NCBI RefSeq assembly: GCF_020906515.1
Contig: NC_085852.1
Coordinates: 1,426,001-1,490,000, forward strand
Source: Vanrija pseudolonga
Lineage: Eukaryota > Basidiomycota > Tremellomycetes > Trichosporonales > Trichosporonaceae
Direction: 5' to 3'
DNA: 64,000 nucleotides
Part shown: positions 28,255 to 33,535 of the stretch, piece by piece
How the letters are laid out: every line of letters starts with the position of its first letter
Position numbering within the stretch: the stretch's first letter is position 1
Notes under the pieces: model-generated
The model's database searches: none
What the model saw: only the letters and a program-made list of their open reading frames with translations
What the model was told of the DNA's origin: nothing
Made by a program: the position numbers and the translations under genes

Positions 28255-31200
28255 ATGGTCTCGTTCGCATCCCCAGTATCCTCGGGATTAGCCACCCCCA
28301 GATCCTACTATGGCGATGTCGACGAGTCGCTCCTCCACAACAATGTCGAAGCAAACCTCCCATGGGTTATTCAGAAGTATGGCGGCACCTCTGTCGGCAA
28401 GTCGCTCGACTCGATCACCCAGATTGTAGAGTGAGTGTGGAGCCAGCCTTAGACACGTTCATCGCACACACACAGACACCAGCTCACGCCACCACCCCCA
28501 GGTCATATCTCAAGACAAATCGCGTCGCTATTGTCTGCTCGGCGCGCTCGACCCAGACCAAGGCCCTCGGCACGACCAACCTCCTCCTCCAGGCGTCTCG
28601 TGAGGCCCTCGAGCCGTCAAAGTCGCGCCCCGACGCCTCGGGCTACCAGACGCCATTGTACCCCAAGCGGGTCGGCAGTGGCTTCTTCAGCGGCTCGATG
28701 ATCTCTTCCTTCTCCTCATTGAAGGACGACACCCCCGCCCGCTCTTCCTCTCCTTCCCCCTTCCACCCCGTTGCTGGCAAGAAGGAGGACAAGAGCAGGT
28801 CGCACTCGCCGACCGACTCGTCGGGCCCGACTACCCCGACGGGCTCCGAGCCGCTCGAGCCTCGCTTCCACACGACTGTCGACACGATCAAGCGGTCACA
28901 TCTGGACGCTGCCCGCGCCACGCTCAAGGAGGGCGCATTGCGCGACGAGCTCGAGGAGGAGATTGAGCGCGACTGTGAGGTCCTCCGCTCATTCTTGAAT
29001 GCCGCGCACGTAAGTGGCAGTGATGGTGGCGATGACACGATCTGTTCACCGATCTCGCGCTAACCAAACCAGATCATCGACGAGATCTCGCCAAGGTCAC
29101 AGGATTCCATCATCGGCACCGGTGAGCGACTGGCATGCAAGATCGTCGCCGCGGCTTTGAGGGATCGTGTAAGTGCCGAGGCGTTGTGTTTCTCCCACAC
29201 CACACACCTGGCTGACAAACAATAGGGCGTCGACTCTGAGCTCGTTGTCCTTGACAACATTGTTGACGCGGCTATGACCGCTGCGACCGACGCCGCTCTC
29301 ACTGCCTCTGGAGACCAGGGCGTCGCCCAACTTGGCCAGTCTTTCTACGACGAGCTCGCTGTGAGGCTTGGTGAGAGATTGAGAGAGTGCGGTCACCGCG
29401 TTCCCGTCATCACCGGATACTTTGGCGCCGTCCCTGGCTCGCTCCTCGCACAGATCGGCCGTGGTTACACCGATCTGTGTGCCGCGCTGTGTGCTGTCGG
29501 TGTGGCCGCGTCTGAGCTCCAGGTCTGGAAGGAGGTCGACGGCATCTTCACTGCCGACCCCCGCAAGGTGCCCACCGCCCGCCTCGTGCCCTCTATTACG
29601 CCCGACGAGGCCGCTGAGCTTACCTACTACGGCTCTGAAGTTATCCACCCCTTCACCATGGAGCAGGTCATCCGCGCAAAGATCCCCATTCGCATCAAGA
29701 ATGTTGACAACCCCGGAGGTCCTGGCACCATCATTCTCCCCGATCAGGACTTCCCCGTCGGCCTCAACGTGCCCCCTCCGGCGCACCTCCCGAACGGTTT
29801 GCTCGACCGCATGCCGACGGCCGTTACCATCAAGGACCAGATCATTGTCCTCAACATCCACTCGAACCGCAAGACCATCTCGCACGGCTTCCTTGCGCGC
29901 ATCTTCGGCACCCTCGACCGCGCTGGTGTCGTCGTCGACCTCATCTCGACGTCCGAGGTGCACGTCTCGATGGCGATGCAGCACTTTTTGAACCCTCGCC
30001 GCTTGGAGCGCCTCATCCGGGACCTCGAGAAGATTGGCGACATTACCGTGTCGAACGACATGGCCATTCTCTCGCTCGTCGGCCGCAACATGCGCAACGC
30101 CATTGGTTCGGCCGGCCTCATGTTCGCCTCGCTCGCCAAGGCCGAGGTCAACATCGAGATGATCTCGCAGGGTGCGAGCGAGATCAACATTTCGTGTGTG
30201 ATTGAGAACAAGGACGCCATCAAGGCCTTGAACATCATCCACGACTCGTGCCTGGCCGTCCCCGCGGCCCCGGCTACCAACGGCGACGCCAACGGTGGTG
30301 CCAATGGCTACGTCCACTCCAAGGCGCTCACGGTCGACACGGTCAACCCTGCAGTCCTGAACGTCGAGTACGCCGTCCGTGGCGAGCTCAACGCCAAGGC
30401 CGAGGTCCTCGCTACCAAGCTCGCCGAGGGAGCAAAGCTGCCCTTTGACCACATCACCTACGCCAACATTGGCAACCCGCAGGAGAAGGAGCTCAAGCAG
30501 AAGCCCCTCACCTACTGGCGCCAGGTTACCTCGTTGGTCGAGTACCCCGACCTTCTTACCCACCCATTGGCCAACGAGCTGTTCCCTGCCGACGTGCTCG
30601 CCAAGGCGACCGAGCTCAACGCCGAGTTTGGTTCGATCGGCGCTTACACTGGCTCCAAGGGTTCGCTGCCGATTCGCCAACGCGTCGCCAAGTTCATCGA
30701 GGCTCGTGATGGCTTCCCTGCCGACCCCGAGCACATTTACCTCACTGGCGGTGCCACCCCTGGCGTGTGGATGATCCTCGGTCTCGCTCTCCGCCCTGGA
30801 GACGCTGCTCTCATCCCCCGCCCCCAGTACCCAGTGTACACTGCCTGCCTCGCCCACCTGCACGCAGTCCCCGTCTCGTACAGCCTGAATGAGTCGGAGG
30901 GCTGGGCGCTCGACCTCACGTCATTGAAGAAGGCCATTGCCCGCGGCCGCAACGACCTGTCGATCAAGACGCTCAAGGCATTGGTGGTTATCAACCCCGG
31001 CAACCCCACCGGCTCGTGCCTTTCTGAGGAGAACATGCGCGAGATTGTGCAGATCGCCTACGACGAGTCGCTTCTGCTTCTGGCCGACGAGGTGTACCAG
31101 ACCAACATTTACGAGCCCGAGCGCAAGCCGTTCATCTCGTTCAAGCAGGTCCTGCGCTCGATGCCCGAGCCGATTGCGTCGTCGGTCGAGCTCGTCTCTT

Positions 31201-31760
31201 TCCACTCGATCTCCAAGGGTGTGAGTGGCGAGTGCGGCCGCCGCGGCGGATACATTGAGACTGTCAACCTCGACTCTGGTGTCGAGGAGCTCCTTCTCAA
31301 GATGGCCTCGATCTCGCTCTGTGCGCCAGTGTCGGGCCAGATTGGCGTCGACCTGCTCGTCTCGCCTCCCAAGGCTGGCTCGCCATCATACGAGCTCTTC
31401 CAGAAGGAGTCTCGCGAGATCCACGAGGGTATGCGCGACCGCTCGGCATACATGCGCGAGCAGTTCAACGCGCTCGAAGGCGTGTCGTGCCAGCCGGCCG
31501 AGGGCGCCATGTACCTCTTCCCGCAGCTCACGCTTCCCCCGCGCGCGATTGAGGCCGCCAAGAAGGCCGGCAAGGAGGCCGACGTGTTCTACGCCCTCGC
31601 TCTGCTCGACGCCACGGGTATCTGCACCGTCGCCGGCTCGGGCTTTGGCCAGGAGGACGGCACGTACCACCTGCGCGTGACCACACTCGCCCCCAACGTC
31701 GAGGACATGATGGCACGCATCACAAAGTTCCACAACGAGTTCTTGTCACAATATGCTTGA
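28255..31760 (+). CDS. HOM3: Aspartate kinase fused to an alanine-aminotransferase-like domain
   Basis: Four exons (28255-28430, 28502-29009, 29073-29168, 29226-31760), exact frame, 1104 residues. Aspartate kinase starts the Met/Thr/Ile branch: Asp + ATP gives aspartyl phosphate. Its motifs are WVIQKYGGTSVGKS (38-50), VAIVCSARSTQTKALGTTNLL, a Ser/Pro-rich insert, GYFGAVPGSLLAQIGRGYTD, WKEVDGIFTADPRK and YYGSEVIHPF. Two ACT domains follow, at about 463-530 and 535-602. A 23-residue Ala/Gly/Asn linker (604-626) leads without any stop into a full class-I aminotransferase. The latter has LTVDTVNPAVLNVEYAVRG, VVINPGNPTGSC, LADEVYQTNIY and SFHSISKGVSGECGRRGGY with PLP lysine K924, all typical of alanine aminotransferase. 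The start at 28255 has a CAACATGG context; an in-frame ATG lies 27 codons upstream (28174). The fusion architecture is not one I know. Confidence 0.93.
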
Positions 31761-32184: not shown

Positions 32185-33535
32185 CTAGTCGTCAAACTTG
32201 ATCGAGTGGGACGCGAGGGTGATATCTCCGCCAGCGTACGACCCGCGCTTCTTCTTGTTCTTCTCCTTGCGGAAGCCGTCGCCGCGCGTCACGATGAGGT
32301 CGCGCGAGGCGCGGGCGCCAAAGTCGTTCGGGTTGGCGCCGTTACGGATGTGCGACTCGAAGCTGTTGTCCATCAGGCGGAAGTCGTGGAACGTCACGTT
32401 CTCCTGCTTGATGCGCTCGAAGCGCTGGCCCTGCCCGCGCGCGGGTTTGCCGTTGCTGCCGCGGGGCGTCGAGCTGCCCGAAGCCGAGGCCGCGTTGAAC
32501 TCTGGCGCGGGGGACGCGACGGACGAGGTGTTGGCGGAAGAAGAAGACGAGGAGGTAGGCGCCGAGGACGGGACCGAGGACGACTCGTCGACCTTGCGCT
32601 TCTTGGCCGGCTCGTCGTCAGAGTCGGAGGACGACGAGGTAGACGGGCTGCGCGCGCGCTTGGCGCCCAGGCCGAGCTTGGGCTTGTCCTCCTCCTCGGA
32701 CTCTGATGACGAGGATGACGAGGACGACGAAGAGGAGGACGAGGAGGAAGATGACGACGACGACGAGTCGCTCTCGCTGTCACTGTCGCTCTCAGAGTCA
32801 GAGCTGCTCGACGAGTCCGAGTCGCTGCTGGAGCTGGACGACGACGACGAGCTGCTGCTGCTGCTGGACGACTCCTTCGCGTTGGCGGGGTCAGGCAGCG
32901 TCTCGCTGCTGCTGCTCGACGCCTTCTTCTTGCCGTCATCGGACGAGTCCGAGTCGGAGTCAGAGCTGGAGTCGGAGTCGGAGCTTGAGTCAGAGCTCGA
33001 GTCAGAGCTGCTGCCGCTCGAGCTCGAGTCAGACTCGGGGAGGGGGACGTCCTTGGGCTCGGTGGGCTTGGAGACTGGGGCGTTAGCTACCTCTCGAGGG
33101 CCCTTGTAGCTCACCAGCCGCCTCCACCTTCTTGGCGTCGTCGCTCTCGTCGTCCGAGCTGCTGTCCGAGTCGCTCGAGCTGTCGCTGGAGTCGCTCTCG
33201 TCGTCCGAGTCCGAGTCCGAGTCGCTGTCGCTCGAGCTGCTGTCCGAGTCCGAGTCCGAGCTCTCGCTGTCGCTCTCGTCGCCGCTGTCCATGTCGACGT
33301 CGTTGTCGGTGGCGGCGGCGGCCTTGGCCGTCAATCCCGCCGCCGCCCAAGCCTTGAGCAGCTGCCCCTCAGCCTCGGGGGCGACGGCGACGCCGGCCTC
33401 CTTCTCAAAGGCCTTGGTCGAGCGCGTAAAGCCGCGCGCGACGAGGTACGAGAGCACCGCGGTGTCGAGGGCTGCGGTGGCGTGAGCTGCTGTGGCACGC
33501 CGGGAGGAAGCCTACGCACCCTTGTTCTCTGCCAT
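32185..33535 (-). CDS. SRP40: SRP40/Nopp140-like nucleolar phosphoprotein with LisH motif
   Basis: Nopp140/SRP40 is a nucleolar chaperone of box C/D and H/ACA snoRNPs. Three exons; the first codes only MAENK plus one base. Spliced, the N-terminus reads LDTAVLSYLVARGFTRSTKAFEKEAG, a LisH-type dimerisation helix pair. The centre is long Ser/Asp/Glu tracts, the usual casein kinase 2 substrate repeats. The C-terminus is the diagnostic SRP40 domain: QRFERIKQENVTFHDFRLMD, then NSFESHIRNGANPNDFGARA, RDLIVTRGDGFRKEKNKKKR and GSYAGGDITLASHSIKFDD. The stop is at 32185. It is convergent with the fusion gene and divergent from the acyltransferase gene. The ATG at 33535 is the only one that joins the LisH exon. 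Confidence 0.93.

What the first reader, a model, noticed from the sequence alone, without database searches (positions are those of the whole stretch)
28255..31760. Aspartate kinase fused in frame to a full alanine-aminotransferase-like enzyme
One continuous frame runs from a complete aspartokinase with both ACT domains, across a short Ala/Gly/Asn linker (residues 604-626), into a complete class-I aminotransferase with the alanine-aminotransferase motif SFHSISKG and PLP Lys924. No stop, intron or frame change lies at the joint; the last exon (29226-31760) spans it. In fungi I know, HOM3 and ALT1 are separate genes. A fused enzyme would tie the committed step of Met/Thr/Ile synthesis to pyruvate/alanine-glutamate exchange. 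The aminotransferase may also have gained another specificity, or sit under ACT-domain control by threonine. The catalytic residues look intact in both halves.
Basis: partly seen in the sequence, partly recalled or inferred. Interest (0 to 1): 0.87.

Follow-up and report, generated by a model that had tools for sequence, protein, structure and literature searches.

The report
Aspartate kinase–alanine transaminase fusion enzyme
In some yeasts related to Cryptococcus, the enzyme that starts methionine, threonine and isoleucine synthesis is built as one protein with a second, complete enzyme of the alanine-transaminase family, a pairing shared by several species and not found described in the papers searched.

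Summary
One gene with three short introns encodes a 1104-residue protein: aspartate kinase (AK) with both ACT domains, a 22-residue linker, then a complete alanine-transaminase (ALT)-type enzyme. The genome is Vanrija pseudolonga, judged from a contig-length match. No other AK was found in it; one close free ALT was. The fusion is not peculiar to this assembly: ten further database proteins carry both enzymes, from V. albida, V. humicola, Cutaneotrichosporon sp. HIS471 and seven unnamed sources. The 11 linkers differ in length (12-38 aa) and sequence. Each half forms one clade. Cryptotrichosporon argae (same order), Cryptococcus and Kwoniella have free AKs. So it is a conserved fusion of at least part of the Trichosporonaceae. 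Cofactor and catalytic residues are kept, but activity is untested; yeast Alt2 shows that kept residues do not prove activity (PMC5960717, passages). Most likely it is a cytosolic bifunctional enzyme holding AK and an ALT-type transaminase at 1:1. Bifunctional AKs are known; this partner was not found in the paper searches made. New variant of a known kind.

The parts
28255..31760 (+). Whole fused gene: 4 exons (28255-28430, 28502-29009, 29073-29168, 29226-31760), 1104 aa, stop 31758-31760
   Evidence: Splicing enumeration, one terminal stop; DNA
28255..30254 (+). Aspartate kinase half, residues 1-603 (spliced); KYGGTSVGK motif at residues 41-49 (28375-28401)
   Evidence: Pfam AA_kinase, NCBIfam TIGR00657 over its cut-off, PDB aspartokinases, motif position
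29883..30038 (+). ACT domain 1, residues 480-531
   Evidence: Pfam PF01842
30069..30245 (+). ACT domain 2, residues 542-600; Gly and Ala ten residues apart in SLVGRNMRNAIGSA
   Evidence: Pfam PF22468; same motif in 11 of 11 fused proteins
30255..30320 (+). Linker, residues 604-625 (Ala/Gly/Asn-rich)
   Evidence: Mean pairwise identity 30.6% against 87.4% (last 320 aa of AK) and 75.8% (ALT) over 55 pairs; low-confidence stretches 330-336 and 338-347 of the model
30321..31757 (+). Alanine-transaminase-type half, residues 626-1104, full length without a presequence
   Evidence: Pfam Aminotran_1_2; 3tcm E 2.6e-127, 3ihj E 1.2e-120; Foldseek 3tcm_A rank 1, TMt 0.94
31215..31217 (+). PLP-binding lysine codon, Lys924 in SFHSISKG
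   Evidence: Invariant in the 11 fused and 42 free ALTs aligned, gaps set aside; motif position

Best explanation
A genuine bifunctional cytosolic enzyme. The N-terminal half is the only aspartate kinase detected in the genome; it makes aspartyl phosphate for Met/Thr/Ile, is expected to dimerise through its ACT domains and to be inhibited by threonine. The C-terminal half is an alanine-transaminase-type PLP enzyme, also expected to be a dimer, that exchanges amino groups between glutamate and alanine (pyruvate/2-oxoglutarate). A paralogous ALT gene lost its start codon and was joined to the end of the AK gene once, before Vanrija and Cutaneotrichosporon separated. The fusion fixes the expression and place of the two activities at 1:1; the free ALT probably serves mitochondria. 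Shown: the fused frame, its conservation, kept residues, a single detected AK. Inferred: both activities, dimerisation, threonine inhibition, location, the way of joining, and the benefit of co-regulating aspartate-pathway entry with cytosolic amino-nitrogen exchange.
For: Continuous frame. Ten of the 120 listed hits carry AA_kinase, ACT and Aminotran_1_2. Linkers of 12-38 aa, none with a Met; the first Met after ACT2 lies 79-239 aa into the ALT part in all 11, so AUG initiation could not yield a full-length separate ALT. Fused ALT halves form one clade (100/100), fused AK halves one clade (100/99). One AK in the genome means this protein must supply AK activity if the yeast makes its own Met/Thr/Ile. 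110 ALT positions are invariant across fused and free rows, including Lys924, Asp881, Tyr884, Asn853 and Arg1077. Vanrija against Cutaneotrichosporon: fused ALT 72.2%, free ALT 76.0%, fused AK 79.0% identity, so the fused ALT is held almost as tightly as the free one. The free ALT begins with 6 K/R and 0 D/E in 29 residues, the fusion with 1 K/R and 3 D/E in 30. The model has a low-confidence joint and retrieves AlaAT and AK structures.
Against: No expression, protein or assay data. Eight of the 11 fused entries lack the N-terminal part of AK in the database record (P0002 and P0003-P0009), so a full-length AK half was seen in three (window, P0001, P0010). S. cerevisiae Alt2 keeps the catalytic residues and PLP binding yet has no alanine transaminase activity (PMC5960717, passages). 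The fused ALT clade has a long stem (0.49, 0.82) and four fixed differences, one (S771T) beside the presumed PLP-phosphate loop (recalled), so specificity may have moved. AK and ALT share no metabolite directly, so the benefit is a guess. Location is judged from N-terminal charge alone. The AK part of the model has modest confidence.
Confidence: 0.62

Rival explanations
1. The fusion is real but the transaminase half has changed or broadened specificity, for example towards oxaloacetate/aspartate, 2-oxobutyrate or glyoxylate, so that it works inside the aspartate-derived pathway.
For: Long stem before the fused ALT clade; fixed changes R720K, I728F, S771T, L996M. Barley AlaAT can make aspartate at 10% of its efficiency for alanine (statement in PMC5960717, passage). 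Aspartate is AK's own substrate, so such an activity would feed the fused partner.
Against: Only four fixed differences under the rule used, mostly conservative; the AlaAT motif and 110 positions are unchanged; best structural match is AlaAT at 46% identity.
Confidence: 0.2
2. The transaminase half is catalytically dead or marginal and serves as a dimerising or stabilising appendage of AK.
For: Precedent of ScAlt2: catalytic residues kept, no alanine transaminase activity (PMC5960717, passages). A free ALT remains in the genome.
Against: In 11 sequences the residues named stay invariant although the halves have diverged to 75.8% mean identity, which fits kept catalysis. ScAlt2 also keeps them, so this is not decisive.
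Confidence: 0.1
3. One gene, two products: the polypeptide is cut in the linker, or a shorter transcript makes AK alone.
For: The linker is variable and of low predicted order, as a cut site could be.
Against: No stop, no GTRNGT donor and no Met at the joint; no NPGP 2A-type motif in any of the 11 proteins; linker sequence not conserved, so no shared protease site is apparent.
Confidence: 0.06
4. Assembly or gene-model artefact joining two neighbours.
For: Gene models do err here: the V. humicola entry P0002 lacks the N-terminal part and other pieces present in the window protein.
Against: The joint lies inside one open frame of raw DNA and recurs with different linkers in ten other database proteins.
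Confidence: 0.01

Closest known systems
Fungal aspartate kinase (Hom3 type), free, as in Cryptococcus P0121, P0122 and Kwoniella P0123, P0124
   Same: Kinase and ACT domains; 72-75% identity over 96-98% of the AK half in these four
   Different: Nine free AKs inspected end 7-19 residues after the ACT2 end; here a whole enzyme follows
Alanine transaminase (ALT; barley 3tcm, human 3ihj, fungal ALTs)
   Same: Full-length alignment, PLP lysine, AlaAT motif, fold
   Different: No start codon or presequence of its own; a separate deep clade beside the free Tremellomycete ALTs
Bifunctional aspartate kinase/homoserine dehydrogenase (ThrA/MetL, plant AK-HSDH; recalled; NCBIfam NF006959 matched far below its cut-off, 199.1 against 726)
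   Same: AK with a second enzyme fused after the ACT domains
   Different: Partner is a transaminase; homoserine dehydrogenase is a separate locus, C2:964914-965522
Bifunctional aspartate kinase/diaminopimelate decarboxylase (NCBIfam NF006515, 162 against cut-off 802)
   Same: AK joined to a PLP enzyme (recalled)
   Different: That PLP enzyme is a decarboxylase of lysine synthesis (recalled); Pfam finds Aminotran_1_2 here
Spermidine synthase-saccharopine reductase fusion of basidiomycetes (PMC10051792; title and start of abstract only)
   Same: Basidiomycete fusion of two metabolic enzymes that are separate in ascomycetes
   Different: Unrelated enzymes

Membership tests
Aspartate kinase (Hom3 type) | AA_kinase domain above the curated cut-off with the KYGGTS motif | tested here: met
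   110.8 bits against 24.9, profile positions 74-234; KYGGTSVGK at residue 41; TIGR00657 257.1 bits against 208.7. Motif seen in 3 of 11 fused entries, the other 8 being cut short at the N-terminus
Aspartate kinase (Hom3 type) | Two C-terminal ACT domains | tested here: met
   PF01842 480-531 and PF22468 542-600
Aspartate kinase (Hom3 type) | Gly and Ala of ACT2 ten residues apart (Hom3 Gly452/Ala462, PMC11022571, passages) | tested here: met
   SLVGRNMRNAIGSA in 11 of 11 fused proteins; matching it to Hom3 positions rests on spacing and on a recalled Hom3 motif
Aspartate kinase (Hom3 type) | AK activity inhibited by threonine | not testable with these tools
   Needs enzyme assay
Alanine transaminase | Full-length alignment to solved AlaATs | tested here: met
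   Query 2-475 of 476 to 3tcm 25-498; 1-476 to 3ihj 24-498
Alanine transaminase | PLP lysine and cofactor/substrate residues | tested here: met
   K924, D881, Y884, N853, R1077 invariant in 11 fused and 42 free rows, gaps set aside; their roles are recalled from class-I aminotransferases
Alanine transaminase | Falls within fungal ALTs in a tree | tested here: met
   Among basidiomycete ALTs, next to 27 free rows whose named members are Tremellomycetes
Alanine transaminase | Alanine:2-oxoglutarate activity | not testable with these tools
   ScAlt2 shows residues do not settle it (PMC5960717)
Bifunctional AK-homoserine dehydrogenase | C-terminal homoserine dehydrogenase | tested here: not met
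   No such domain in the protein; found on C2 instead
Bifunctional AK-diaminopimelate decarboxylase | Decarboxylase domain fused to AK | tested here: not met
   No such Pfam domain; Aminotran_1_2 instead

The most novel reading that the evidence does not exclude
The transaminase half makes aspartate from oxaloacetate and hands it to the kinase half, or accepts a downstream oxo-acid, so that threonine bound to the ACT domains controls both aspartate supply and its phosphorylation in one machine: a self-feeding, feedback-controlled entry to the aspartate pathway.
Probability: 0.1. Interest if true: 0.78.

Novelty: new variant of a known kind. Interest (0 to 1): 0.52.

Why it matters
Fusions often join enzymes that act together (general knowledge), so this one suggests that entry to Met/Thr/Ile synthesis and an alanine-type transaminase are used together in these yeasts, a link the standard pathway map does not show. 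It may serve as a clade marker within Trichosporonales and is a natural test of whether ACT-domain control can spread to a fused PLP enzyme. Databases name the protein 'Aspartokinase' (P0001), 'alanine transaminase' (P0004, P0008) or 'hypothetical protein' (P0002, P0010), so half of it is missed each time.

Tried and rejected
Assembly or model artefact: rejected. Strict intron donor, stop or internal start at the joint: none found. 2A-type peptide (NPGP): absent from the 11 proteins. A second AK that would make the fusion dispensable: not found by AK protein, AA_kinase or ACT_9 searches; the other AA_kinase matches, two at C3:1210703-1211418 and one at C6:1774320-1775060, were not matched by the AK query; these searches work exon by exon and the assembly may be incomplete. 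Recent copy of the Trichosporonaceae free ALT: rejected with outgroups (p-AU 2.9e-5; 1.3e-5 with all Trichosporonales-type free rows). Without 15 rows (14 non-Tremellomycetes and Mrakia) p was 0.015 and 0.09, so the second version is not rejected there and the age of the duplication stays open; a long stem may pull the clade to the base. Cryptotrichosporon AK as sister of the fused AKs: unresolved. Trichosporon asahii and Apiotrichum: no AK entry named for them among the 120 rows listed, so their state is unknown. Paper searches showed no description of this fusion; several list only part of what they found (20 of 589; 20 of 21; 20 of 48; 8 of 13), and subscription papers and preprints are mostly not held.

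Full report
What is there. The finding's coordinates are right. The gene runs 28255-31760 on the + strand with introns at 28431-28501, 29010-29072 and 29169-29225; enumeration of GT/AG choices gave a 1104-aa product, and a 1100-aa variant that differs only at the start of exon 3. The last exon carries the rest of the kinase, both ACT domains, the linker and the whole transaminase without an internal stop; from its first ATG it is an 828-aa ORF. Pfam finds AA_kinase, ACT, ACT_9 (with overlapping ACT_7) and Aminotran_1_2 over their cut-offs. The AA_kinase match covers profile positions 74-234; the N-terminal kinase part with KYGGTSVGK at residue 41 is recognised by motif and by a weak 3.8-bit stretch to 3c1m. 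The kinase half matches aspartokinase structures 3c1m, 2hmf and 2cdq, the transaminase half barley 3tcm and human 3ihj alanine aminotransferases nearly from end to end. A model of the 828-aa frame (59-row alignment, mean pLDDT 80, pTM 0.61) has low confidence at model residues 330-336 and 338-347, the joint; Foldseek puts 3tcm_A first (TMt 0.94) and an aspartate kinase, 2cdq_A, at rank 9. The AK part of that model is of modest confidence.

Which organism. Contig C1 of the window's genome is 4,733,269 bases, the length given for the contig of the Vanrija pseudolonga ALT protein P0252. I take the genome as V. pseudolonga, Trichosporonaceae, Trichosporonales. Cutaneotrichosporon is in the same family.

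Gene content. The AK half has one match in the genome, itself; ACT_9 also occurs only here. AA_kinase gave four matches: this gene, two at C3:1210703-1211418 and one at C6:1774320-1775060; the last three were not matched by the AK query. The ALT half has one close free paralogue in three exons at C1:1635703-1637321, 54-67% identical by exon, and three weak matches (26-29% identity, E about 1e-5 to 1e-4) elsewhere; Aminotran_1_2 as a family gave nine matches. Homoserine dehydrogenase is elsewhere, C2:964914-965522.

How widespread. A search with residues 600-1104, limited by the tool to proteins of about 607-1932 aa, gave 181 hits among 7997 scored candidates; 120 were listed and 10 of those 120 carry AK, ACT and transaminase domains: P0001 V. 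albida, P0002 V. humicola, P0010 Cutaneotrichosporon sp. HIS471 and P0003-P0009 from unnamed sources labelled lgn or jgi. Eight of these ten records lack the N-terminal part of AK. With the AK half, 669 hits among 8000 candidates, 120 listed: 5 of 120 carry the transaminase domain (P0001, P0002, P0010, P0009, P0004); the other 115 do not, including Cryptococcus, Kwoniella, Naganishia and Cryptotrichosporon argae (P0136), which belongs to the same order but to Tetragoniomycetaceae. With the ALT half, 7641 hits of 8000, 120 listed, length limit about 833 aa: 2 of 120 are fused (P0006, P0007); free ALTs include Cutaneotrichosporon P0246, Trichosporon asahii P0251, V. pseudolonga P0252 and two of C. 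argae, P0254 and P0257. So two genera carry both the fusion and a free ALT. No AK entry named for T. asahii or Apiotrichum appeared in these lists, so nothing is claimed for them.

The joint. The 11 linkers (window plus ten) are 12-38 aa, dissimilar (mean pairwise identity 30.6% against 87.4% for the last 320 aa of AK and 75.8% for ALT, 55 pairs), and the first Met after ACT2 lies 79-239 residues into the transaminase. Nine free AKs inspected end 7-19 residues after the same ACT2 end, and eleven free ALTs inspected start before the same motif with their own Met or presequence. The simplest origin is loss of the AK stop and of the ALT start; that is inference.

Trees. ALT tree: 11 fused halves and 42 of the 118 free ALTs listed. 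Fused halves are one clade, 100/100, sister to 27 free rows whose named members are Tremellomycetes; Mrakia, also a Tremellomycete (recalled), lies outside with a long branch. Joining the fused halves with four Trichosporonaceae-type free ALTs (three named plus the unnamed P0241) is rejected, p-AU 2.9e-5; with all six Trichosporonales-type free rows, 1.3e-5. Leaving out 15 rows (14 non-Tremellomycetes and Mrakia) weakens this to 0.015 and 0.09. The duplication may therefore predate most of the class, with loss elsewhere, or be younger and fast-evolving. AK tree: 11 fused and 29 of the 115 free AKs; fused ones are one clade, 100/99, and the place of C. argae is unresolved. One origin of the fusion fits both trees.

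Is the transaminase half working? Of aligned columns, 110 are invariant in fused and free rows (gaps set aside), including Lys924 and other recalled class-I active-site residues; only four positions are fixed differently (R720K, I728F, S771T, L996M) under the rule fused invariant, free at least 90%. Between Vanrija and Cutaneotrichosporon the fused ALT is 72.2% identical, the free ALT 76.0%. That favours activity. Against a firm claim stands S. cerevisiae Alt2, which keeps the catalytic residues and PLP binding but has no alanine transaminase activity (PMC5960717, passages). The same paper states that barley AlaAT can synthesise aspartate with 10% efficiency compared with alanine; this makes a link to AK's substrate thinkable.

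Regulation. AKs bind regulators between ACT domains of two monomers, and yeast AK is allosterically regulated by threonine (PMC11022571, passages). The ACT2 Gly/Ala pair that the paper discusses appears with the same spacing in all 11 fused proteins. Whether threonine also alters the transaminase is unknown.

Location. The fused protein starts without a basic stretch (1 K/R, 3 D/E in 30), while the free ALT starts with 6 K/R and no D/E in 29 residues, with a second Met at residue 18. I infer a cytosolic fusion and a mitochondrial or dual free ALT; no targeting program was run.

Literature. Ten searches of the held open library showed no description; two searches sought background, and four of the ten list only part of what they found. 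I saw search listings, and passages of PMC11022571 and PMC5960717 only. The proteins themselves are in public databases under half-names.

Verdict. Real, conserved and, as far as searched, undescribed; a new pairing within the known kind of bifunctional aspartate kinases. Interest is moderate: the architecture is firm, the biochemical meaning is open and easily tested.

Noticed in passing
P0002 (V. humicola VHUM_01311): The deposited model lacks the N-terminal part of AK and short pieces present in the other Vanrija proteins, which looks like gene-model error.
   Followed up: partly
L020:1114-2825 (G000 C1): Free ALT gene: arginine-rich start and a second in-frame Met at residue 18, as for one gene giving mitochondrial and cytosolic forms.
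   Followed up: partly
   Followed up: partly
32185-33457 (-): Downstream gene: serine-rich protein with an SRP40 C-terminal domain, and a weak LisH match (below cut-off) in the next ORF upstream on that strand; probably one split gene.
   Followed up: partly
30756-30758 (fused ALT residue 771): Thr in the fused ALTs where all 42 free ones aligned have Ser, next to the presumed PLP-phosphate loop.
   Followed up: no
P0212 (Phenoliferia psychrophenolica, 1034 aa): An AK entry nearly as long as the fusion but with only AK and ACT domains listed; the extra length was not examined.
   Followed up: no
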